This document shows, one piece after another, positions 190-13,618 of a DNA stretch of 14,868 nt. Position numbers and translations under genes: made by a program. The notes beneath the pieces were generated by a model. That model saw only the letters and a list, made by a program, of their open reading frames with translations, searched no databases and was not told the DNA's origin. The stretch is from Nitrososphaerales archaeon. GTDB taxonomy: Archaea > Thermoproteota > Nitrososphaeria > Nitrososphaerales > CADDZS01. The stretch covers positions 1-14,868 of the forward strand of contig JASHXQ010000259.1 of NCBI GenBank assembly GCA_030043455.1, given 5' to 3'. How positions within the stretch are numbered: position 1 is the first letter of the stretch; each line of letters starts with the position of its first letter.

Positions 190-2274
190 ATGCTTTCTGC
201 GAAGACTGGATCGGCCATCTCACGAGTGCAAACGGTGGTTATTGTGGTCGTTGTCCTAATTGTGATCGTAGCTGCGGGGTATATCGTTACCCTTCCGAGC
301 AAAGCTACGACCACCAGCACGGCCAGTTCATCTTCGAGCTCGTCCAGTTCTTCAAGCTCGGTCGTAGTAAATAGCACTCCTTCCAGCTCTTCCTCATCTT
401 CCTCAAGTTCCAGCTCGAGCCCAATCACGACGAGCAATAGCTCTTCCTCTTCCATATCTCCACCCACAACTTCTACATCTGCATCCCAAGCTACAAGCTC
501 CACTTCGTCGTCCTCTTCCATTGCTCCGCTGATTTCAGTGGACAGCTGGATCTGGCCCGGCGTAGACCTGAACATGCTCTGGGCTCCCACGGGATCCAAC
601 TGGCCTCTGTGGATGGCATATGCCGTGAACCAGCCCTTAGTACAAGTGAACATTACCGCTCAAAATGAGGGGAACCTCCAGTACTTGCCAGGTCTCGCTC
701 AAAACTGGACAGTATCCTCCAGTGGAACGACCTACACTTTCAATCTGAGACAGGGGATCAATTTCTCCGATGGAAACCCCTTCAACGCGTATCAGGTCTG
801 GTCTCAGATGTACAGCTTCTACTATCTCTCTGACAATGACTCCAGCTGGCTGTACGGGTATCCGAATCTGTTCAACTACGCTCCGGTCCAGTTTGGACCG
901 GCTACGCTTGCCCTAATGAACCAAACGAATGCAGTGAGCAATCCGACAGGACAGCTGTTGCAGATCATGGAAAACAGCTCGTGGCCGATCTATGCTACTG
1001 GACCCTACTCCATTGTGTTCCAGCTCAACAACCCGTTCATTTGGTTCCCCGGAACCCTGACGGTATACGCGGGTTTGGTTTTGGACATGCAGTACGTCTT
1101 TGACAACGGGGGATTGGGGACGCCCACGACTTACAATCCATACTTCAACCAGCACCCGATTCCGGGCACGGGGCCGTACGAGATCACACAGGTGTCCGAA
1201 CTAGACTACGTAAAGTTCCAGCAAGTCCCCAACTACTGGGGAGCCAATCTAAGCGCGGCGTATCTTGCGCAATATCCCTATCTCGATCCGGGTCACGCCA
1301 AGACGATCATAGTCTACTACAAGACAGATGACCTGACGAGATATACAGATCTCACGGACAATGCGGCGCAAGTCGTTACCATACAGCAGCCCGACTGGAA
1401 CTTGGTGACTTCAAATCCTGATCTCGCCTACTATCAGCTACCTGCGATTAGCGACGACGTTTCCATCCTCGGTCTGAACACCCAGCTCTACCCTACTAAT
1501 ATCACCGCCGTGAGACAGGCGATCGTGCGTGCGATCAACTATTCACAGATCTACGCTCAAGCCGATCTGGGAAAACCCGCGTATTACATGGGGCCGGTCG
1601 CGCCCATTTTTAGCAACCTGTATGACCTGGGAGGGTATGCCCCCTATCAGTTCAACCTCACGCTGGCGACACAAATTCTGGTGAACGCAAGCATTAATCC
1701 GGCGAATCTGCCGACTCTGACCTTCAGAATTGTCAGCGGGTGCTACGCCTGTCAGACGGTCGCGCAGGATGTTCAGGCGGATCTTGCTGCGATTAACATG
1801 ACAGTGCAAATCGTGGTGCAAACCCCAGCTCTCTTCAATTCCTATCTGGGTGCATACACGTCCGAGCTGGCTAACCCACAGGGAGTCGGTAACATCGCCT
1901 TCCCCTACGATTCGGTGGGATGGGGGCCCTTCGCTCCTACACCCGTAGACAACCCAATTTCCTTCGTCAGCAACACGTCACTCTTTGGAAACTCTGCAAT
2001 CTATTACAATCCAATCGTCCAGACCTGCGTGAATTCGATGACTTCGAGCGCTAACATTTCCGCCATCCAAGCGCTGTGCAAACCTGCTCAGGCGCAGATT
2101 TACAATGACGCGCCGTACGCGTGGATTGGACAGATCACCCTCTGGGGACAGGCGGGTGGCTCGCTGGTCTGGAACACTAAGGTTGTGTCAGGCTTTCTGG
2201 TGGACGGCGAGTGGTCTGGAGAATCCATCGACCCTATCCTAAATACAATCTCGCTGGTGCCCGGGGCCAGTTGA
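190..2274 (+). CDS. ABC transporter substrate-binding protein, family 5 (oligopeptide/dipeptide type), membrane-anchored
   Basis: A 694-residue extracytoplasmic solute receptor, probably for peptides. Residues 1-12 are short and basic, and 13-34 form one hydrophobic helix. The Ala9-Ile10-Ser11 context resembles the class III (pilin-like) signals of Sulfolobus sugar and peptide receptors. Residues 38-110 are an almost pure Ser/Thr linker. The binding domain runs from about 111 to the end, with the SBP_bac_5 signature near 164-200: LPGLAQNW, YTFNLRQGINFSDG, then an Asn-Ala. Many N-X-S/T sequons suggest heavy N-glycosylation. Four cysteines (518, 521, 613, 630) could form disulfides. Bacterial relatives are about 500-550 residues, the excess here being the linker and anchor. 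No permease or ATPase gene lies within the window. A weak terminator or none separates it from the convergent peptidase 43 bases away. The family is secure; the ligand is inferred. Confidence 0.9.
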   Translation: MLSAKTGSAISRVQTVVIVVVVLIVIVAAGYIVTLPSKATTTSTASSSSSSSSSSSSVVVNSTPSSSSSSSSSSSSSPITTSNSSSSSISPPTTSTSASQATSSTSSSSSIAPLISVDSWIWPGVDLNMLWAPTGSNWPLWMAYAVNQPLVQVNITAQNEGNLQYLPGLAQNWTVSSSGTTYTFNLRQGINFSDGNPFNAYQVWSQMYSFYYLSDNDSSWLYGYPNLFNYAPVQFGPATLALMNQTNAVSNPTGQLLQIMENSSWPIYATGPYSIVFQLNNPFIWFPGTLTVYAGLVLDMQYVFDNGGLGTPTTYNPYFNQHPIPGTGPYEITQVSELDYVKFQQVPNYWGANLSAAYLAQYPYLDPGHAKTIIVYYKTDDLTRYTDLTDNAAQVVTIQQPDWNLVTSNPDLAYYQLPAISDDVSILGLNTQLYPTNITAVRQAIVRAINYSQIYAQADLGKPAYYMGPVAPIFSNLYDLGGYAPYQFNLTLATQILVNASINPANLPTLTFRIVSGCYACQTVAQDVQADLAAINMTVQIVVQTPALFNSYLGAYTSELANPQGVGNIAFPYDSVGWGPFAPTPVDNPISFVSNTSLFGNSAIYYNPIVQTCVNSMTSSANISAIQALCKPAQAQIYNDAPYAWIGQITLWGQAGGSLVWNTKVVSGFLVDGEWSGESIDPILNTISLVPGAS
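301..520 (+). repeat. Low-complexity Ser/Thr linker coding region
   Basis: This stretch encodes residues 38-110 of the binding protein and is mostly serine. All six serine codons are used in mixed order (AGC, AGT, TCA, TCC, TCG, TCT). The repeat is therefore maintained at the protein level rather than being a simple DNA slippage tract. It probably acts as an O-glycosylated spacer holding the binding domain away from the membrane through the S-layer. That role is an inference from other archaeal receptors. Confidence 0.7.
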
Positions 2275-4230: not shown

Positions 4231-5250
4231 TCAGATAGGCTTCGCCGGCTGAAATAGCTCTTTGTACGCGAACAACGCCGGAACGCCTCCTGTGTGCACG
4301 AAGCAGACGTTCATATCTTTCGAGAAATCTCCCTTCTTTACTGAATCGATCACAAATGCCAACGTCTTTGAAGTGTACACGGGATCGATGATCAAACCCT
4401 CTTTTCTCGCTATGAGTCTCAAGGCATCATTGGATTTCCTTGTGGGAAAACCGTAGCCGTCCCCGGCGTAACCTTCTATCACGTGGATGTCTCCCTTTTG
4501 AAGCTCAATATTGGTGCCAAGAAGCTGCGAGGCGCCACCGGCACACTCGAGAGCTGTCTGGACTATCTTTTTCGTCGTATAGGCTCCAATGTTTACTCCC
4601 ATCACTTTGGTCCTGGTGCCTAGAATTTTCATACCCAGGGCGAGACCAGCATAGGTCGAGCCCGACCCGTTCGCAACTATTAGGGCGTCAATGTTTACGC
4701 CCATACGATCAATTTGCTTTTGCAGTTCAAACGCACATTCTGCAAAGGCCCCCGCGACAATGGGAGAGGAGGACATTTTCGGCCCTAATACGATTGGGTT
4801 GTATCCCTTTTTCCTGAGTTTGGCCGCTTCTTCTTGGAGATATTCTTCCGGATCCTCATCAATTCCCATGTCTACGATCCGAATATCCGCGCCCATTATG
4901 TGGTCAAGCAAGATGTTGCCGTCCAGAACACGGGGCTTTCGTTTGAACTGTGCCTTTCTCAGGACAAGTGAAGGTTTCATACCCAGCTTGATTGCTGCAG
5001 CCACAGTTTGTCTCGACCAGTTGGATTGGATACCGCATGTCGTAATCACAGCGTTAGCTTTCATTTGCTTGGCTTTGACGAGAAGATAATCCAAAGACCT
5101 TGTCTTGTTTCCACCCAAAGCGAGTCCGCTCATGTCTTCTCTCTTGACGTAGAGCTTCGCTCCTCCCAACTCCTCGGTCAGCCGGGGCATAAACTCAAAC
5201 GGGGTGGGAAAATTTCCGATTCCAACCCGTTCTAATTTTTGGATCTCCAT
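4231..5250 (-). CDS. PLP-dependent D-cysteine desulfhydrase / ACC deaminase family protein
   Basis: A 339-residue fold-type II PLP enzyme. The cofactor lysine is Lys49 in GGNKTR, the substrate serine motif is QSNWSRQ near residue 75, and the phosphate-binding loop is NGSGSTYAG near 194. The C-terminal motif VHTGGVPALF is typical of the family. At the discriminating site the sequence is DPVYTSK, with Thr293 where true ACC deaminases have Glu in DPVYEGK. It is therefore more like D-cysteine desulfhydrase (D-cysteine to pyruvate, ammonia and sulfide) or a related D-amino-acid lyase. An upstream TTG (5262) and ATG (5259) are also in frame. I chose the ATG at 5250 because a CTAAATAG box at 5273-5280 would start transcription almost exactly there, and family members begin just before a conserved F-P-T-P. 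Family certain; exact substrate inferred. Confidence 0.9.
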   Translation of the reverse strand: MEIQKLERVGIGNFPTPFEFMPRLTEELGGAKLYVKREDMSGLALGGNKTRSLDYLLVKAKQMKANAVITTCGIQSNWSRQTVAAAIKLGMKPSLVLRKAQFKRKPRVLDGNILLDHIMGADIRIVDMGIDEDPEEYLQEEAAKLRKKGYNPIVLGPKMSSSPIVAGAFAECAFELQKQIDRMGVNIDALIVANGSGSTYAGLALGMKILGTRTKVMGVNIGAYTTKKIVQTALECAGGASQLLGTNIELQKGDIHVIEGYAGDGYGFPTRKSNDALRLIARKEGLIIDPVYTSKTLAFVIDSVKKGDFSKDMNVCFVHTGGVPALFAYKELFQPAKPI

Positions 5251-5272
5251 CTTACCCATCAATGATACAAGA

Positions 5273-5787: not shown

Positions 5788-6684
5788 TTGATAGTTAGCT
5801 TGGAATTGCTAGTCTTCCTCGCGTTGCTCTCCCTCGCCGCTTCTTTTGTGAATGGCGGCATCGGTTACGGATATTCTTCCCTGTCCGTTCCTCTGGCTAT
5901 CCTAGTGATTGCTAACAAGATCATCAACCCAGTTTACGTCCTCGTCGAAGCCTGCGTAAATACTGTGATGCTCGCGTTCGCGGGAAAGGCCAACATCAAG
6001 GCAACCTTCCGGCGCGTGATTCCTATTGTGTTACCTGTCGTCCCCGGTGTCATCATTGGCAGCTATCTTCTCAGTATTGTGGCCCCGCTTTGGGTAAAGT
6101 TCATAGTATACGCCGCTATACTTCCCCTAGTTCTCCTTCAAGCAGCCGGCTTTCGGAAACCCATCAAGAAAGAATCTGCCGCAGGAGTCCCCCTCGGTTT
6201 GGGAATTGGACTACTCTATTCCATCACCACGATCTCTGGGCCTCCTATCGCACTCTTTTGGAGCAATCAGGGGATGGCAAAGAACGAATTCAAAGCGGCT
6301 GTCGCTCAGGTGCGTATTGCAGAATCGTATCTCACATGCATTTCATATGCCATCCTCGGGTTGTTTACTGCTACGACTTTCCAGCTTTTCACCTTCACCG
6401 CGCTTCCAGTGTTTTTGGGAATTCCACTGGGAATGATCGTTGCAGTAAAGATCTCGGCGGAGACTTTCAGGAGATTTGCGATGGCCTTCAATGCCGGTGT
6501 TGTCGGCTTTGGACTCGCACAGGTCTTCCTGTCGTTGTTTAAACTCTCGCCTCTTTTCTCCTACTCTTTCTGGGGCGTGGTTGTGGCGATCGACTTGGCT
6601 CTACTCTTCAGATATCTAAGGGACCGGAACAAGGTAAAGGAAGAACCCTCGAAACTCGAAGTCCCTCTAACACAAGCAAAGTAA
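5788..6684 (+). CDS. TSUP (TauE/SafE) family membrane exporter
   Basis: A 298-residue polytopic membrane protein, length typical of the sulfite exporter TauE/SafE family, which moves small organic or sulfur anions such as sulfite or sulfoacetate. The N-terminal half holds the family's Gly-rich first repeat (S-F-V-N-G-G-I-G-Y-G-Y-S-S-L near residues 19-32). A second repeat begins near 130 with V-P-L-G-L-G-I-G-L-L-Y-S and S-G-P-P-I-A. Roughly eight hydrophobic segments are visible. The C-terminal tail is charged and cytosolic. The start is a TTG with no Shine-Dalgarno sequence, placed about 22 bases after the predicted transcription start. Substrate cannot be read from sequence; sulfur export would fit a desulfhydrase next door but is speculative. 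A T-rich terminator follows, and a palindrome on the promoter suggests regulation. Confidence 0.88.
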   Translation: MIVSLELLVFLALLSLAASFVNGGIGYGYSSLSVPLAILVIANKIINPVYVLVEACVNTVMLAFAGKANIKATFRRVIPIVLPVVPGVIIGSYLLSIVAPLWVKFIVYAAILPLVLLQAAGFRKPIKKESAAGVPLGLGIGLLYSITTISGPPIALFWSNQGMAKNEFKAAVAQVRIAESYLTCISYAILGLFTATTFQLFTFTALPVFLGIPLGMIVAVKISAETFRRFAMAFNAGVVGFGLAQVFLSLFKLSPLFSYSFWGVVVAIDLALLFRYLRDRNKVKEEPSKLEVPLTQAK

Positions 6685-7280: not shown

Positions 7281-7793
7281 TTGGGCAACATCAGAACGCC
7301 AGATGCGAAGGAGAGAATCCGGACCTGGCTGAGTGAGGAGCGGCTTTCTCCTGAGGAAGTGCAGAATGCGGGCACTTTTTTCACATTTAAGATCAACGTC
7401 TACGGCACGATCATGTTTGTAGTGCACTCCACCCAGTTTGCTGACTCTTTTTCTGTCTCCGCATCCTTCGATCTGACTGGGGACAAAGATCAACGGATTC
7501 TCCAGACAATGGACACGAAAAAGAGAACCGAGTTCCTGAGAGACCTGAGCATAGCCTTACTTTCCAACAACGGGATCTGGTATCACCTGATCCGACCCAA
7601 CCCACCGAACGAGATGAAAGTATTCGAACTCGCCTCGCGTAGGATTTACTACGATACGATGACCAAAGAGAAAGTGATGAATGCCGTTCTGGATGTCCGC
7701 AACGCTTCCGGAATTTTCACCTGTCTGTTCGAAAAATACGCGGGTCCTGTCATTGTGCCTAAGCAGGAAGCTAGGGCGTCTTTCATCGGTTAG
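7281..7793 (+). CDS. DUF2299-like conserved archaeal protein
   Basis: A 170-residue soluble protein of unknown function. It opens with an amphipathic helix (R-I-R-T-W-L-S-E-E) and a beta-rich segment (F-F-T-F-K-I-N-V-Y-G-T-I-M-F-V-V). Then comes K-K-R-T-E-F-L-R-D-L-S-I-A-L-L near residues 74-90 and R-R-I-Y-Y-D-T-M-T-K-E-K-V-M-N-A-V near 124-142. This order (W-L helix, strands, 'FL.DL...L', 'IY.D.LT...') is what I remember of the archaeal DUF2299 family, which has a secretion-chaperone-like fold; I could not confirm it. There is no signal peptide or membrane span. The start is a TTG because an in-frame TAG lies only nine bases upstream and no ATG or GTG is near. A palindrome and a leader hairpin precede it, so expression is probably controlled. 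Confidence 0.6.
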   Translation: MGNIRTPDAKERIRTWLSEERLSPEEVQNAGTFFTFKINVYGTIMFVVHSTQFADSFSVSASFDLTGDKDQRILQTMDTKKRTEFLRDLSIALLSNNGIWYHLIRPNPPNEMKVFELASRRIYYDTMTKEKVMNAVLDVRNASGIFTCLFEKYAGPVIVPKQEARASFIG

Positions 7794-7926
7794 CCCGCAA
7801 GGTCGTAATGCTAGGGTCCTCCAGAGGGGGAGTATCAGAGTAGACGAGCTTACATCACAGCCAAGAAATCGGAGCATTAGTACGCTTATCAAGCACCTAC
7901 TCTAAGCTCGAGCCCGCATCGTACTC

Positions 7927-7933
7927 AGGAGGT
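7927..7933 (+). promoter_or_regulatory. Shine-Dalgarno sequence preceding an ATA start
   Basis: AGGAGGT lies eight bases before the ATA at 7942-7944, an ideal spacing. No ATG, GTG or TTG occurs in the same frame between the upstream stop (7903-7905) and position 8089. It therefore decides the start of the wHTH-HD gene. A TATA-like CTTATCAA (7884-7891) would start transcription near 7915. Confidence 0.55.
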
Positions 7934-7941
7934 CATCTAGC

Positions 7942-8817
7942 ATAGCAGATCCGCAAAGCGACATCGAGCAACGTATTCTGGAGTTCCTCCAGAAAAAACA
8001 GACAGCGACCAACGCCGGGATAGCCAAGGAGTTTTCCCTGGAAGAGAAATCGGTCAACGAGATACTGAATAATCTGCGAAAGGAGGGCTTGGTGCAATTC
8101 CAGCAAGAGTTGCGTCTAACTCGCGGGGAGCTGATCATGGCGAAAATCTCTGCGAAGGGAACTACAACGGTTCTCTCTCCGAAGGTCGAAACGATGCAGC
8201 CGAGCATTCGGAAAGGCTACGATTTTGATCACCTATCCTCCGCGATCCGATTCGCCTCTTACGCCCACCAGGACGAGTTTCGTAAGGGAACCACGGTTCC
8301 CTACGTTGTGCACCCGCTCGACGTCCTTTCTATCCTTCTAAAGAACGGAGCGAGTGAAGACCTCGCAATAGCTGGAGTCTTACACGACGTCTTGGAAGAC
8401 ACGCCTCACTCTAGAAAGGAAATTCGCAAGAATTTTGGAGATGCCGTGGGGACACTGGTGGAGGGAGCCTCAGAGAGTGAAGCCTTGACCAAGGGAGTTC
8501 CGAACGAGGAGAAGAAGAAAACTTGGAAACTCCGCAAGACCGAACGGATTGAGAAAGTCAAGACCTCCGGCAGGGAATTGCGTCTTTTGATTTGCGCGGA
8601 CAAACTGGCGAATATCAGGGATCTCTTGGTAGACCTGCATGTGCGAGGTGAGCCAGCGTGGGAGAAGTTCAACGCTCCCAAAGAAGAGGAAGAATGGTAT
8701 TATCGGGAGATCGCTGCCGCCATGGCTTCATCGAAGGGTACTGATTCCGACATTTCCGGAACCGCGGCGTATCAAGAACTCGAACGGTGTATCCAGGAAG
8801 TTTTTGGTCCTCCTTGA
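7942..8817 (+). CDS. Winged-helix domain fused to a SpoT/Mesh1-like HD hydrolase
   Basis: A 291-residue protein. Residues 7-62 form a winged-helix-like DNA-binding domain (D-I-E-Q-R-I-L-E-F-L, then T-N-A-G-I-A-K-E-F, K-S-V-N-E-I-L-N-N-L-R-K-E-G-L-V). Residues about 95-225 are an HD phosphohydrolase domain of the RelA/SpoT hydrolase type. The metal ligands are His124 (Y-V-V-H-P), His148-Asp149 with the Glu152-Asp153 pair (LHDVLEDT), and Asp220 (CADKLANIRD). R114-K115 of the RK motif and F-G-D-A-V are also present. No alarmone synthetase or ACT domain follows, so it resembles stand-alone small alarmone hydrolases, which remove the 3'-pyrophosphate of (p)ppGpp. A DNA-binding fusion suggests a nucleotide-sensing regulator. 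The start is an ATA behind a strong Shine-Dalgarno sequence; starting at the TTG at 8089 would remove most of the winged helix. The alcohol dehydrogenase follows 40 bases later. Confidence 0.8.
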   Translation: MADPQSDIEQRILEFLQKKQTATNAGIAKEFSLEEKSVNEILNNLRKEGLVQFQQELRLTRGELIMAKISAKGTTTVLSPKVETMQPSIRKGYDFDHLSSAIRFASYAHQDEFRKGTTVPYVVHPLDVLSILLKNGASEDLAIAGVLHDVLEDTPHSRKEIRKNFGDAVGTLVEGASESEALTKGVPNEEKKKTWKLRKTERIEKVKTSGRELRLLICADKLANIRDLLVDLHVRGEPAWEKFNAPKEEEEWYYREIAAAMASSKGTDSDISGTAAYQELERCIQEVFGPP

Positions 8818-8857: not shown

Positions 8858-9934
8858 TTGAAAGCGATGAGAATTGTGGCCTGGGGTAAGCCTCTGGAGC
8901 TTCAACAAATTCCAGTCCCTAAGCCAAATGGCAGAGAGGCTCTCGTAAAAATTACCGCGTCAGGTGTCTGTCACAGTGATGTTCACATCCTCGAGGGAGC
9001 ATACGATCTTGGAGAAGGGCGTAAAATGTCGATGTCCGATCGTGGGGCTTCTCTTCCAATTACCTTGGGACACGAAATAGCAGGCACCATCGAATCTCTC
9101 CCTCCGGGAGGGATTTCGGATCCCGCCGGTTTGAAATTAGGTGATCCCGTGGTGGTTTATCCGTGGCTGGGTTGCGGTCAGTGTCGAAAGTGTCGCGCTG
9201 GTCTAGAAAATATTTGTGAGGTTAAACCGAGAAGTTTAGGCATTTTCCAAGATGGGGGACACGCAGAATATGCGCTAGTGCCCGATGTGAGATATTTGGT
9301 GCCATTGGGTAAGGTGGATCCTGTTCACGGGGCGCTTCTAGGGTGCTCGGGCCTCACCACTTATAGTGCCGTGAAAAAATCCCGACTCGGGGCGAGCGAA
9401 CTCCTTGTAGTCATCGGGGCGGGGGGTCTGGGTACTACCGCGATCCAGATAGCGAAAAAGACTACTGGAGCGAGAGTGATCGCTATGGATGTGGACGACA
9501 AAAAGCTCGATGTTGCGCGGGAAGTCGGAGCGGATCTTGGGATAAATACAAGAGGACTCGCCAACAGAGAGATCCTTTCGAAAGTGAGAGATTTCAATGC
9601 AAAGCTGCCGGCGGATGCAGCGATTGATTTTGTAGGCACGCCGGCGACCAGTTCGCTCGGCTTTGATTTGATTGGTCGCGGAGGCAGGCTGGTTATGGTA
9701 GGTCTTTTCGGTGGCGAGGGTAAATTCCCCCTGCCCCTTTTCCCCATCAAGTCTGTAGAGGTAAAGGGTAATTTTACAGGAACCCTCGAGGATCTTGGGG
9801 AAATGGTCCAGCTTGTTTCCAGAGGCCTCATCAATCCGGTGGTCTCCGAGACACTGCCACTTGAGAAAGCCAACGACGCGATGGAGAGGCTGGCGGCAGG
9901 CAAAATTCAGGGTAGAGCGGTTCTAGTTCCTTGA
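8858..9934 (+). CDS. adh: Zinc-dependent, NAD-linked alcohol dehydrogenase (Sulfolobus ADH type)
   Basis: A 358-residue medium-chain dehydrogenase that oxidises alcohols or reduces aldehydes. Catalytic zinc ligands are Cys38 (GVCHSD), His72-Glu73 (GHE) and Cys163 (L-G-C-S-G). The structural zinc site is complete: Cys106, Cys109, Cys112 and Cys120. The Rossmann loop G-A-G-G-L-G is at 187-192, and Asp211 ends the second strand, favouring NAD over NADP. The whole sequence tracks Sulfolobus solfataricus ADH, including the opening: L-K-A-M-R-I-V-A-W-G-K-P-L aligns residue for residue with that enzyme's start, which is why I chose the TTG at 8858 rather than the ATG at 8867 or a longer frame. A GGGGAG stretch 12-13 bases upstream may be the ribosome-binding site. 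Probably co-transcribed with the wHTH-HD gene before it and the DUF971 gene after it. Confidence 0.93.
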   Translation: MKAMRIVAWGKPLELQQIPVPKPNGREALVKITASGVCHSDVHILEGAYDLGEGRKMSMSDRGASLPITLGHEIAGTIESLPPGGISDPAGLKLGDPVVVYPWLGCGQCRKCRAGLENICEVKPRSLGIFQDGGHAEYALVPDVRYLVPLGKVDPVHGALLGCSGLTTYSAVKKSRLGASELLVVIGAGGLGTTAIQIAKKTTGARVIAMDVDDKKLDVAREVGADLGINTRGLANREILSKVRDFNAKLPADAAIDFVGTPATSSLGFDLIGRGGRLVMVGLFGGEGKFPLPLFPIKSVEVKGNFTGTLEDLGEMVQLVSRGLINPVVSETLPLEKANDAMERLAAGKIQGRAVLVP

Positions 9935-10312: not shown

Positions 10313-10390
10313 AACCATCCTCGCACCCGTCACCTGTCGGCATTCAGCTTTTCTAAGACTCTCAGACATCTTGAGGATGTGGTTTCAAAG

Positions 10391-10771
10391 ATGAACACAA
10401 GACTAACTTACACCGGAATAAGGGTGAAAGACTTGGATGCTTCGATCGAATTTTACACGAAACTCCTCGGGATGAAACAAACCGGAAGATCTAAGATCGA
10501 AGCGACCGGTGCCGAGGTGGCAAGTCTCGCAAGCGAGGACGGCGGCCACGAAATCGAACTCAACTTTTATCCCAAAGGGAGTCGATTTTATTCAGAATAT
10601 ATTCCAGGAGAGAGCCTAGATCACTTCGCCTTCAAGGTAGATAATCTGGACAGGGCGCTTGAGGAAGCCGCTCAAGCAGGGTATCCTACGGTTCTCGATA
10701 TGAAGGGCAAGACGAGCCGGTGGGCGTACATTCAGGATCCCAATGGGATCTATATCGAGCTCTTCGCATAA
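10391..10771 (+). CDS. VOC-superfamily (glyoxalase I-like) protein
   Basis: A 126-residue vicinal-oxygen-chelate protein with both beta-alpha-beta-beta-beta modules: Y-T-G-I-R-V-K-D-L-D-A-S-I-E-F-Y with L-L-G-M at the start, and L-D-H-F-A-F-K-V-D-N-L near residue 76. The end reads Y-I-Q-D-P-N-G-I-Y-I-E-L-F. Compared with E. coli glyoxalase I metal ligands (His5, Glu56, His74, Glu122), three are conserved here (Glu56, His78, Glu123), but the first is Tyr7. It may therefore be a metal-dependent lyase, dioxygenase or epimerase other than a true lactoylglutathione lyase. I used the ATG at 10391; a GTG at 10379 is in frame but leaves the GAGG at 10373-10376 only two bases away. It follows the DUF971 gene by 78 bases on the same strand. 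Confidence 0.85.
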   Translation: MNTRLTYTGIRVKDLDASIEFYTKLLGMKQTGRSKIEATGAEVASLASEDGGHEIELNFYPKGSRFYSEYIPGESLDHFAFKVDNLDRALEEAAQAGYPTVLDMKGKTSRWAYIQDPNGIYIELFA

Positions 10772-12772: not shown

Positions 12773-13618
12773 TCACGTCCCCCTCCGGTTCCCCCAGAGA
12801 AGAATGTGCAAGCGCGGGGTGATCCTGTATCCCCGATTTTCGCAGACTTTCGCAAGCTTCTGTGTACTATCTTTCAAAACCGAGACATCAGTTCCTTCCG
12901 CCATCAGAATGATCCTGTTCGGGGGTATTCGATAGCGATGCGACAGATCGTCTATTTCTCGGAGGTCTTGATCAAAAGTTTGAGCACCGACAACATATTT
13001 GAAATAACAATTCAGCAACTTGGCAAAATTGCTCAGAGGCTCCTTTCTTTCTCGGGAATGTCTGGAATTACCCGAACTCTCCAATTTCGGAGAGACATTC
13101 CACTGATCTACAAGGGAAAACAATTCCACACTAGGCTTGATCGAACCGTTAGTCTCGATCTCGATATAGAAACGATCCTTTACGTCTGCGCTTCGCCTCT
13201 TCAGACGCTCAAAAAGTGGAATCAGCTGGAGATGTTGTACTAAGGGTTCGCCCCCCGTAACCACCAGATGATCTATTCCGTAGCTTTCAATCCTAGACGC
13301 GGCTTCCTCAATGGCTAGAGCTTGCGTTTCTTCGGAGGTATCGTAAACTCGCAAATCTCCGGGAATTAGATCTCCCCGAACTCCCAATCGGTCCATATCG
13401 GACATGACAGTTTGAAGCAACTTCTCACTGTAGAGCCAAGTATACTTGGTGTCGCAATACCAGCAATGTAAATTGCACACAGCCAATCTCAAGAATACGG
13501 AAGGAGCACCGAGATTGATCCCTTCCCCCTGTATCGAGCTGAAGATCTCGGAGACCAGCAAGGGCCTCACCTTCTCAGTGGCCAGCATTGACTCGTCTCG
13601 CCTTTTTCCCGATACCAT
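12773..13618 (-). CDS. queE: 7-carboxy-7-deazaguanine synthase, radical SAM enzyme
   Basis: QueE converts 6-carboxytetrahydropterin to 7-carboxy-7-deazaguanine, on the route to preQ0 and, in archaea, archaeosine in tRNA. The 281-residue protein has V-S-E-I-F-S-S-I-Q-G-E-G at 22-33. The radical SAM cluster motif C-x3-C-x2-C follows, with Cys48, Cys52 and Cys55 (C-N-L-H-C-W-Y-C-D-T). T-G-G-E-P is at 121-125, E-T-N-G at 155-158 and S-P-K at 176-178. Bacterial enzymes are about 210-245 residues; this one has an extended middle. Two ATGs are possible, 13618 and 13588 (residue 11). A TTTATC box just upstream favours 13618 as leaderless, whereas coupling to the overlapping 66-residue gene would favour 13588. 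QueC and QueD are not in the window. Confidence 0.93.
   Translation of the reverse strand: MVSGKRRDESMLATEKVRPLLVSEIFSSIQGEGINLGAPSVFLRLAVCNLHCWYCDTKYTWLYSEKLLQTVMSDMDRLGVRGDLIPGDLRVYDTSEETQALAIEEAASRIESYGIDHLVVTGGEPLVQHLQLIPLFERLKRRSADVKDRFYIEIETNGSIKPSVELFSLVDQWNVSPKLESSGNSRHSRERKEPLSNFAKLLNCYFKYVVGAQTFDQDLREIDDLSHRYRIPPNRIILMAEGTDVSVLKDSTQKLAKVCENRGYRITPRLHILLWGNRRGT

What the first reader, a model, noticed from the sequence alone, without database searches (positions are those of the whole stretch)
7942..8817. Winged-helix domain fused to a stand-alone SpoT/Mesh1-type HD hydrolase in an archaeon
All metal ligands and the ED pair of (p)ppGpp hydrolases are present, yet no synthetase domain follows and the N-terminus looks like a DNA-binding winged helix. 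Alarmone enzymes are uncommon in archaea, and I do not know of a described wHTH-hydrolase fusion. It could be a transcription factor that senses or destroys a nucleotide signal, possibly controlling the downstream dehydrogenase cluster.
Basis: partly seen in the sequence, partly recalled or inferred. Interest (0 to 1): 0.7.

Follow-up and report, generated by a model that had tools for sequence, protein, structure and literature searches.

The report
Archaeal DNA-binding domain fused to alarmone hydrolase
A group of uncultured archaea carries a conserved protein that joins a DNA-binding type of domain to an intact alarmone-hydrolase domain, although no known alarmone-making enzyme was found in the one related genome that could be searched, which suggests a gene regulator that senses or destroys a nucleotide or cofactor.

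Summary
Window 7942-8817 encodes 291 residues: a winged helix (1-78), a variable linker and a RelH/Mesh1-L-type small alarmone hydrolase domain (92-291). Pfam, AlphaFold and structure comparison agree on both halves. The fusion is no local accident: 28 of 120 listed hits cover at least 96% of the query at 55-80% identity; the metal and catalytic residues are invariant in 29 aligned rows except D220 (28 of 29). The host is a Nitrososphaerales-type archaeon. Two surprises: the frame starts at ATA, so a database copy is cut short (P0005); and neither the one relative with a searchable genome (G001) nor 8 family genomes has a RelA/SpoT synthetase match. A zinc alcohol dehydrogenase gene follows in the window and in L001, but a contig-length proxy links the genes on only 2 of 19 other contigs. 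Best reading: a regulator and enzyme in one protein that binds DNA and hydrolyses a phosphorylated nucleotide or cofactor. DNA binding, substrate and regulation are inferred. My searches found no description of this architecture. It is a new variant of a known family.

The parts
7942..8817 (+). wHTH-SAH fusion gene, 291 codons plus stop; non-canonical ATA first codon
7942..8175 (+). winged helix-turn-helix, residues 1-78 (H4-19, E21-23, H24-30, H35-47, E51-59, E62-69, H71-78)
8176..8214 (+). variable linker, residues 79-91
   Evidence: 18.1% mean pairwise identity against 62.8% and 69.9% for its neighbours; residues 80-90 pLDDT under 50
8215..8814 (+). RelH/Mesh1-L-type HD hydrolase domain, residues 92-291, with W195-x-x-R198-K199 and the W240-F243-N244-W252-Y253-Y254 signature
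7927..7933 (+). AGGAGGT, Shine-Dalgarno-like, 8 nt before ATA 7942
   Evidence: sequence; L001 shows no such block before its ATG
7886..7898 (+). TTATCAAGCACCT, block shared with nearly the same place upstream of L001's gene (TTATCAAGCGCCT); candidate promoter or operator
   Evidence: not enriched in G001, 6 hits with up to 1 mismatch against 12 for the reversed control
8867..9934 (+). zinc alcohol dehydrogenase, 49 nt after the fusion gene; possibly co-transcribed
   Evidence: ADH_N and ADH_zinc_N; the same gene starts 31 nt after the homologue in L001, 42 of 55 residues identical before the contig ends
9956..10312 (+). DUF971 / GBBH-like_N protein, possible next gene of the same transcript
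   Evidence: PF06155 E 9.6e-27; spacing only
10379..10771 (+). glyoxalase-family protein, possible further gene of the transcript
   Evidence: PF00903 E 1.3e-17; spacing only

Best explanation
It is a one-component regulator that is also an enzyme. The N-terminal winged helix binds DNA, probably near its own operon with the alcohol dehydrogenase. The C-terminal RelH/Mesh1-L-type HD domain binds and, with a metal such as Mn2+, hydrolyses the phosphate or pyrophosphate on the ribose of a nucleotide or cofactor: (p)ppGpp/(p)ppApp-like, or NADPH or CoA as reported for other family members. Substrate occupancy would change DNA binding, and hydrolysis would reset the switch. Shown here: the two domains, their conservation together, the intact catalytic set, and no RelA/SpoT synthetase domain found in the one related genome. 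Inferred: DNA binding, catalysis, substrate, coupling and targets.
For: Both domains by Pfam, model and structure comparison. 28 of 120 listed homologues cover at least 96% of the query; winged helix and HD domain are under similar constraint, 62.8% and 69.9% mean pairwise identity, with a free linker at 18.1%. Metal and catalytic residues 29 of 29, D220 28 of 29. RelH of C. glutamicum, the nearest characterised relative found, is a Mn-dependent (pp)pGpp hydrolase placed in the Mesh1-L group (PMC5954133, passages); XccSAH, also Mesh1-L, cleaves (pp)pGpp, pppApp and NADPH (PMC9765508, abstract and passages); MESH1 is also reported to cleave CoA (PMC13221220, abstract). The ADH gene follows directly in window and L001. 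No PF04607 synthetase match in any of the 9 held genomes of G001's family, while the control rings in 11 of 14 known genomes, Methanosarcina acetivorans among them.
Against: No binding, activity or expression data exist. The ADH link is seen in only 2 of 19 other contigs by length. The shared 13-mer upstream is not repeated in G001 above control, and no shared palindrome was found. Only one archaeal relative (L001) gave DNA, so no operator could be derived. A1 was picked for full length: some relatives are listed without the winged helix (P0034, 203 residues on a 1.8 Mb contig; P0041, 213 residues; P0035 and P0038 on short contigs), and whether their starts are right is unknown. HTH_24 is detected in 22 of 29 rows, not all. 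G001 is a MAG of unstated completeness, so absence of a synthetase is weak for one genome. A winged helix can serve for dimerisation or RNA binding instead of promoter binding.
Confidence: 0.45

Rival explanations
1. A housekeeping alarmone hydrolase: archaeal (p)ppGpp or (p)ppApp made by an unrecognised or non-homologous synthetase is destroyed here, and the winged helix only places or dimerises the enzyme.
For: Closest solved and characterised relatives include (pp)pGpp hydrolases. 10 of 350 genomes of the class do carry a PF04607 synthetase domain. N. [quoted passage not shown]
Against: No PF04607 match in G001 or the 8 other held genomes of its family. [quoted passage not shown]
Confidence: 0.2
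2. An immunity or antitoxin hydrolase that detoxifies alarmones made by bacterial or mobile toxic synthetases, with the winged helix controlling its own expression.
For: SAHs can act as antitoxins against toxic synthetases (PMC9765508, introduction passage), and Streptomyces exports alarmone synthetases (PMC12691689, abstract). The family is rare and patchy: only G001 itself among 400, 9 and 398 genomes searched.
Against: No synthetase family appears in the Pfam or NCBIfam scans of 14 other window ORFs (smaller ORFs were not scanned); PADLOC gives only weak matches of the winged helix to three CARF models; no relative in viral contigs.
Confidence: 0.15
3. A cofactor phosphatase (NADPH or CoA) whose winged helix is only a dimerisation or tethering module, tuned with the neighbouring dehydrogenase.
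For: MESH1 and XccSAH cleave NADPH, MESH1 also CoA (abstracts). A zinc-type dehydrogenase gene (cofactor not tested) is adjacent in window and L001. No synthetase match in the family.
Against: The winged helix keeps invariant residues in the recognition-helix region and wing (N39 and R61 29 of 29, R46 28 of 29), which pure dimerisation would not need. XccSAH is said to lack a well-defined nicotinamide-ribose motif yet cleaves NADPH, so the substrate cannot be read from sequence.
Confidence: 0.15
4. Translation really begins at TTG 8089 or ATG 8137, and the protein in this organism is a plain HD hydrolase with a broken or unused winged-helix segment.
For: 7942 is ATA and no ATG, GTG or TTG precedes 8089 in frame; the database copy P0005 starts at 8137.
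Against: Codons 2-49 show protein-level constraint against L001 (10/7/28 differences by position), Shine-Dalgarno-like AGGAGGT sits 8 nt before 7942, and 24 of 28 homologues in A1 start within one column of it. It would concern this copy only, not the family.
Confidence: 0.05

Closest known systems
RelH of Corynebacterium glutamicum (7qoc, 7qod; Mesh1-L small alarmone hydrolase)
   Different: RelH is a bacterial protein of one domain in a host with Rel and RelS synthetases; no winged helix in the 196-residue chain
Leptospira levettii SAH (7qoe) and Listeria Lmo0812 (4yf1)
   Same: best sequence hits, E 2.3e-36 and 7.1e-33 with the A1 profile
   Different: bacterial chains of 204 and 187 residues without a winged helix
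Metazoan MESH1
   Different: about 26% identity; profile match ends at residue 229, before the W..FN..WYY end; no DNA-binding domain
MarR/TrmB-type winged-helix regulators
   Different: no HD hydrolase noted in the listed regulator chains
NrtR (Nudix-winged helix) and archaeal RbkR (winged helix-riboflavin kinase)
   Same: works like: nucleotide or cofactor enzyme fold joined to a winged helix as a regulator (NrtR: abstract starts in the listing; RbkR: recalled, nothing read)
   Different: unrelated enzyme folds; analogues, not relatives
Stand-alone HD proteins of Nitrososphaeria (L055-L081)
   Same: HD_4-like, HD and ED motifs
   Different: open frames of about 175-215 residues, about 28-37% identical over the match, 0 of 27 with the W..FN..WYY end; in another part of the full tree, though one clade with the family is not rejected in a reduced set

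Membership tests
Small alarmone hydrolase (SAH), Mesh1-L/RelH type | HD_4 hydrolase domain without a synthetase domain | tested here: met
   PF13328 E 3.7e-19, no PF04607 among the Pfam matches shown
Small alarmone hydrolase (SAH), Mesh1-L/RelH type | metal and catalytic residues (RK..H, HD, ED, D/N of the last motif) | tested here: met
   29 of 29 at R114, K115, H124, H148, D149, E152, D153, N224; D220 28 of 29; aligned to RelH and Rel; the roles of single residues are recalled
Small alarmone hydrolase (SAH), Mesh1-L/RelH type | fold of solved SAHs | tested here: met
Small alarmone hydrolase (SAH), Mesh1-L/RelH type | groups with RelH-type rather than long RSH in a tree | tested here: inconclusive
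   Split supported 98 in the 169-row quick tree, but no named Mesh1-L sequence was in it; placement rests on PDB scores
Small alarmone hydrolase (SAH), Mesh1-L/RelH type | hydrolysis of (pp)pGpp | not testable with these tools
   needs an assay
Small alarmone hydrolase (SAH), Mesh1-L/RelH type | single-domain protein (usual for SAHs, Atkinson 2011) | tested here: not met
   a winged-helix region precedes the domain in the 29 full-length rows of A1, modelled for P0001 and detected as HTH_24 in 22; [quoted passage not shown] A usual trait, not a catalytic one
Winged-helix transcription regulator | winged-helix topology (helix, strand, two helices, two wing strands) | tested here: met
Winged-helix transcription regulator | sequence-specific DNA binding | not testable with these tools
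   needs EMSA or DAP-seq; upstream 13-mer shared with L001 is only a lead
Z-alpha (Z-DNA/Z-RNA binding) domain | Z-alpha sequence match above cut-off | tested here: inconclusive
   P0001 scores 19.6 bits against the PF02295 cut-off of 21, but 16 of 29 members match at E up to 0.01, P0008 and P0039 carry PF02295 in the precomputed Pfam column, and Z-alpha chains are the best PDB hits of residues 1-85 (E 0.005)
Long RSH (RelA/SpoT/Rel) | synthetase, TGS and ACT domains after the HD domain | tested here: not met
   protein ends at residue 291; no such domain among the matches

The most novel reading that the evidence does not exclude
A new class of archaeal one-component switch in which a transcription factor destroys its own signal: a winged helix joined to a catalytically intact alarmone-hydrolase domain that reads a ribose-phosphorylated nucleotide or cofactor (NADPH, CoA or an alarmone) in a lineage without a RelA/SpoT synthetase, and couples it to redox-enzyme genes.
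Probability: 0.3. Interest if true: 0.8.

Novelty: new variant of a known kind. Interest (0 to 1): 0.6.

Why it matters
A ppGpp-mediated stringent response is said not to have been observed in archaea (PMC12542715), yet here a conserved archaeal protein ties an alarmone-hydrolase fold directly to a DNA-binding type of domain. If the mechanism holds, it would be a direct route from a nucleotide or cofactor pool to transcription in archaea, and it would make the question of what orphan alarmone hydrolases read (alarmone, NADPH or CoA) testable in one protein. The same approach would bear on the many stand-alone HD hydrolases of Nitrososphaeria, whose genomes rarely show synthetases.

Tried and rejected
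Tried without result: viral contigs (2 stretches matched a pattern, no relative); a search for the shared upstream 13-mer in G001 (6 hits with up to 1 mismatch, 12 for the reversed control, so no regulon signal); inverted repeats upstream (window and L001 differ, no shared palindrome); sigma-70 scan (0 promoter-like sites, not meaningful for an archaeon); a wHTH gene beside the Heimdallarchaeota stand-alone relative L002 as a split form (I saw none by eye among the 10 ORFs listed; they were not scanned against a library).

Considered and rejected or left open: Z-alpha function stays open (see Membership tests); in the alignment to the kinase Z-alpha chains the asparagine of the recognition helix is shared, but the basic and aromatic residues that follow it are not, and that these contact Z-DNA is recalled. 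A chance or contaminating MAG contig: G001 also holds a queE on another contig that is 65% identical to the window's queE, against 43-53% for the main matches in the five other family genomes with a match (two further short fragments there show 69-71%; three genomes have none), so the window and G001 are kin. Derivation from the stand-alone Nitrososphaeria hydrolases: the full quick tree separates them (98), but a reduced 90-row test does not reject one clade (p-AU 0.643), so the origin is open. Monophyly of the fusion family (35 rows): support 89, 57 and 95. A grouping of the family with the Methanohalophilus-type, Heimdallarchaeota and two unnamed relatives had support 0 and is not claimed. 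Contig-length matching is a proxy on capped listings of 120; coincidences do occur at short lengths (1344 and 1212 in the listings are too short for both genes), so only HD contigs of 5 kb or more were used, 19 rows, with P0005 (the window itself) left out. Trees left out P0005, P0033, P0036, P0037, P0039, P0040, P0101-P0121 except P0117, and L028, L037, L050-L054, L090; one search left out nine further long branches, and its careful search was not finished (quick tree used). The signature count left out P0033, P0036, P0037, P0039 and P0040; its 35 family rows include both P0001 and its shorter copy P0005.

Full report

The start. 7942 is ATA. The frame is open from 7906 and has no ATG, GTG or TTG before 8089. 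A database copy of this very gene, P0005, starts at 8137 and so has lost the winged helix. I accept the 7942 start because AGGAGGT lies 8 nt upstream, 24 of the 28 homologues in A1 begin within one column of that place (20 of them with Met), and codons 2-49 differ from L001 mostly at third positions (10/7/28). Whether ATA is a real start or a base-call or assembly error cannot be decided here.

A conserved family. The protein search gave 129 hits at E up to 0.001, 120 listed; 28 of the 120 cover at least 96% of the query, at 55-80% identity. These 28 and P0001 make A1. HD_4 is found in 29 of 29 and HTH_24 in 22 of 29. Mean pairwise identity is 62.8% in the winged helix (4-78), 18.1% in the linker (79-91), 69.9% in the HD domain (92-262) and 47.4% in the C-terminal tail. 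Residues R114, K115, H124, H148, D149, E152, D153, W195, R198, K199 and N224 are invariant; D220, the presumed last metal ligand, is Tyr in one row (P0004). In the winged helix N39 and R61 are invariant and R46 is 28 of 29. Against a universal fusion: P0034 (203 residues, longest contig 1.8 Mb), P0041 (213), P0035 and P0038 are listed without the winged helix; I could not see their DNA.

Which hydrolase. Sequence search of the PDB ranks 7qoe, 4yf1 (Lmo0812) and 7qoc (RelH) far above long Rel proteins and MESH1. By regular expression, the W-x-x-R-K-like motif and the W..FN..WYY end are both in 35 of 35 family rows; among 52 other hits (P0041-P0092) the end is in 7 and the motif in 41, among 30 genome-contig loci (L002-L031) in 3 and 21, among 27 stand-alone Nitrososphaeria proteins in 0 and 1, among 9 proteins I took as long RSHs by length in 0 and 0. 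RelH was placed in the Mesh1-L group and shown to hydrolyse (pp)pGpp with Mn2+ (PMC5954133, passages). [quoted passage not shown] MESH1 is also reported as a CoA phosphatase (PMC13221220, abstract). So the fold and motifs predict a metal-dependent hydrolase of a ribose-phosphorylated nucleotide or cofactor, but not which one.

Host and distribution. Of 51 loci found among GTDB species contigs, L001, 'Nitrososphaerales archaeon isolate JOPF053', 70% identical, is the only one matched over the full query; that scan used two peptide patterns, so it is not exhaustive. The window's queE is 65% identical to one on another contig of that genome (G001) and 43-53% in the main matches of the five other family genomes that have one, so the window comes from a close lineage; a window-type dehydrogenase hit, P0257, is named '[Nitrososphaerales archaeon]'. 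With A1 at E up to 1e-20 only G001 itself is found: 1 of 400 in its order, 1 of 398 in its phylum; at E up to 0.001, 1 of 9 in its family. The family is thus rare in held genomes; its other members come mostly from unnamed contigs.

No alarmone maker found. PF04607 (RelA_SpoT synthetase) is found in 0 of 9 genomes of G001's family, while the control search rings in 11 of 14 known genomes, including Methanosarcina acetivorans. In the class it is found in 10 of 350, whereas 144 of 400 genomes of the class have a match to P0001 at E up to 0.001, nearly all listed rows in the HD half (G337 only in residues 7-95). PF13328 finds only the fusion gene in G001 and nothing in the other eight. Completeness of these genomes is not told, so single absences are weak.

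Neighbourhood. In the window a zinc alcohol dehydrogenase starts 49 nt downstream, followed by a DUF971-type protein and a glyoxalase on the same strand. In L001 the same dehydrogenase starts 31 nt after the homologue, 42 of 55 residues identical before the contig ends. By equal contig lengths, 2 of 19 other contigs of 5 kb or more carry both genes, and 2 of 19 carry the window-type queE (lists capped at 120). The link is therefore real in two loci read at DNA level but not shown to be general. A 13-base block, TTATCAAGC(A/G)CCT, lies 56-58 nt before the start in both window and L001; it is not enriched in G001, so it may be a promoter element.

Mechanism. I think the likeliest reading is a one-component regulator with a working hydrolase as sensor, in the way NrtR proteins join a Nudix fold to DNA binding (abstract starts in the listing; the archaeal RbkR analogy is recalled). 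Steps shown: domains, co-conservation, catalytic set, lack of a detected synthetase in one related genome. Steps inferred: DNA binding, hydrolysis, substrate, coupling, target operon.

Novelty. [quoted passage not shown] My searches with alarmone-hydrolase or ppGpp terms plus archaea, DNA-binding or helix-turn-helix terms showed no report of a winged helix-SAH fusion in what they listed: 8 of 8 listed; 20 of 26; 2 of 2; 20 of 1,048; 20 of 73. I saw titles and abstract starts there, and opened passages of PMC3153485 and of PMC10434055, whose 'helix-turn-helix' means TPR repeats. The library holds open-licence papers only, and the JBC 2022 paper on SAH dimers was not held. N. viennensis was said to carry a putative SpoT/RelA gene, with no ppGpp response observed in archaea (PMC12542715, passages). 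I file it as a new architecture of a known enzyme family.

Noticed in passing
L055-L081: Stand-alone HD hydrolases (open frames of about 175-215 residues) occur in many Nitrososphaeria genomes (144 of 400 genomes match P0001, nearly all listed rows in the HD half), while synthetase domains are rare (10 of 350): a large set of orphan alarmone-hydrolase-like proteins of unknown substrate.
   Followed up: partly
window 7942; P0005, P0006, P0033: The gene's first codon is ATA and its database copy is cut to 226 residues; two close relatives (P0006, P0033) are also listed from an internal Met with most of the winged helix missing, so the fusion may be under-annotated.
   Followed up: partly
P0004 residue 220 (window numbering): One family member has Tyr in place of the presumed metal-ligand Asp; could be sequencing error or a non-catalytic sensor copy.
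   Followed up: no
P0043, P0044: P0043, named Methanohalophilus, and its relative P0044 carry a different N-terminal extension of about 60-100 residues before the same kind of HD domain.
   Followed up: no
P0082, P0090, P0059: Precomputed Pfam domains show other HD_4 fusions: with nitroreductase, with an APH-type phosphotransferase, and with Sel1 repeats (domain names recalled from accession numbers).
   Followed up: no
window 12773-13618 (-): QueE-like 7-carboxy-7-deazaguanine synthase; equal contig lengths put it on two contigs with the fusion gene.
   Followed up: partly
window 7281-7793 (+): DUF2299 protein directly upstream of the fusion gene; not seen in L001, where ABC-transporter-like genes on the other strand lie upstream (by eye).
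   Followed up: partly
window 190-2274 (+): ABC-type peptide/nickel substrate-binding protein (NCBIfam matches below cut-off) with a long Ser/Thr-rich stretch after its N-terminal hydrophobic segment.
   Followed up: no
window 4231-5262 (-): PLP enzyme close to D-cysteate sulfo-lyase/D-cysteine desulfhydrase models, below their cut-offs, about 0.5 kb from a TauE/SafE-family gene at 5788-6684 on the other strand; a possible sulfonate or sulfur link.
   Followed up: no
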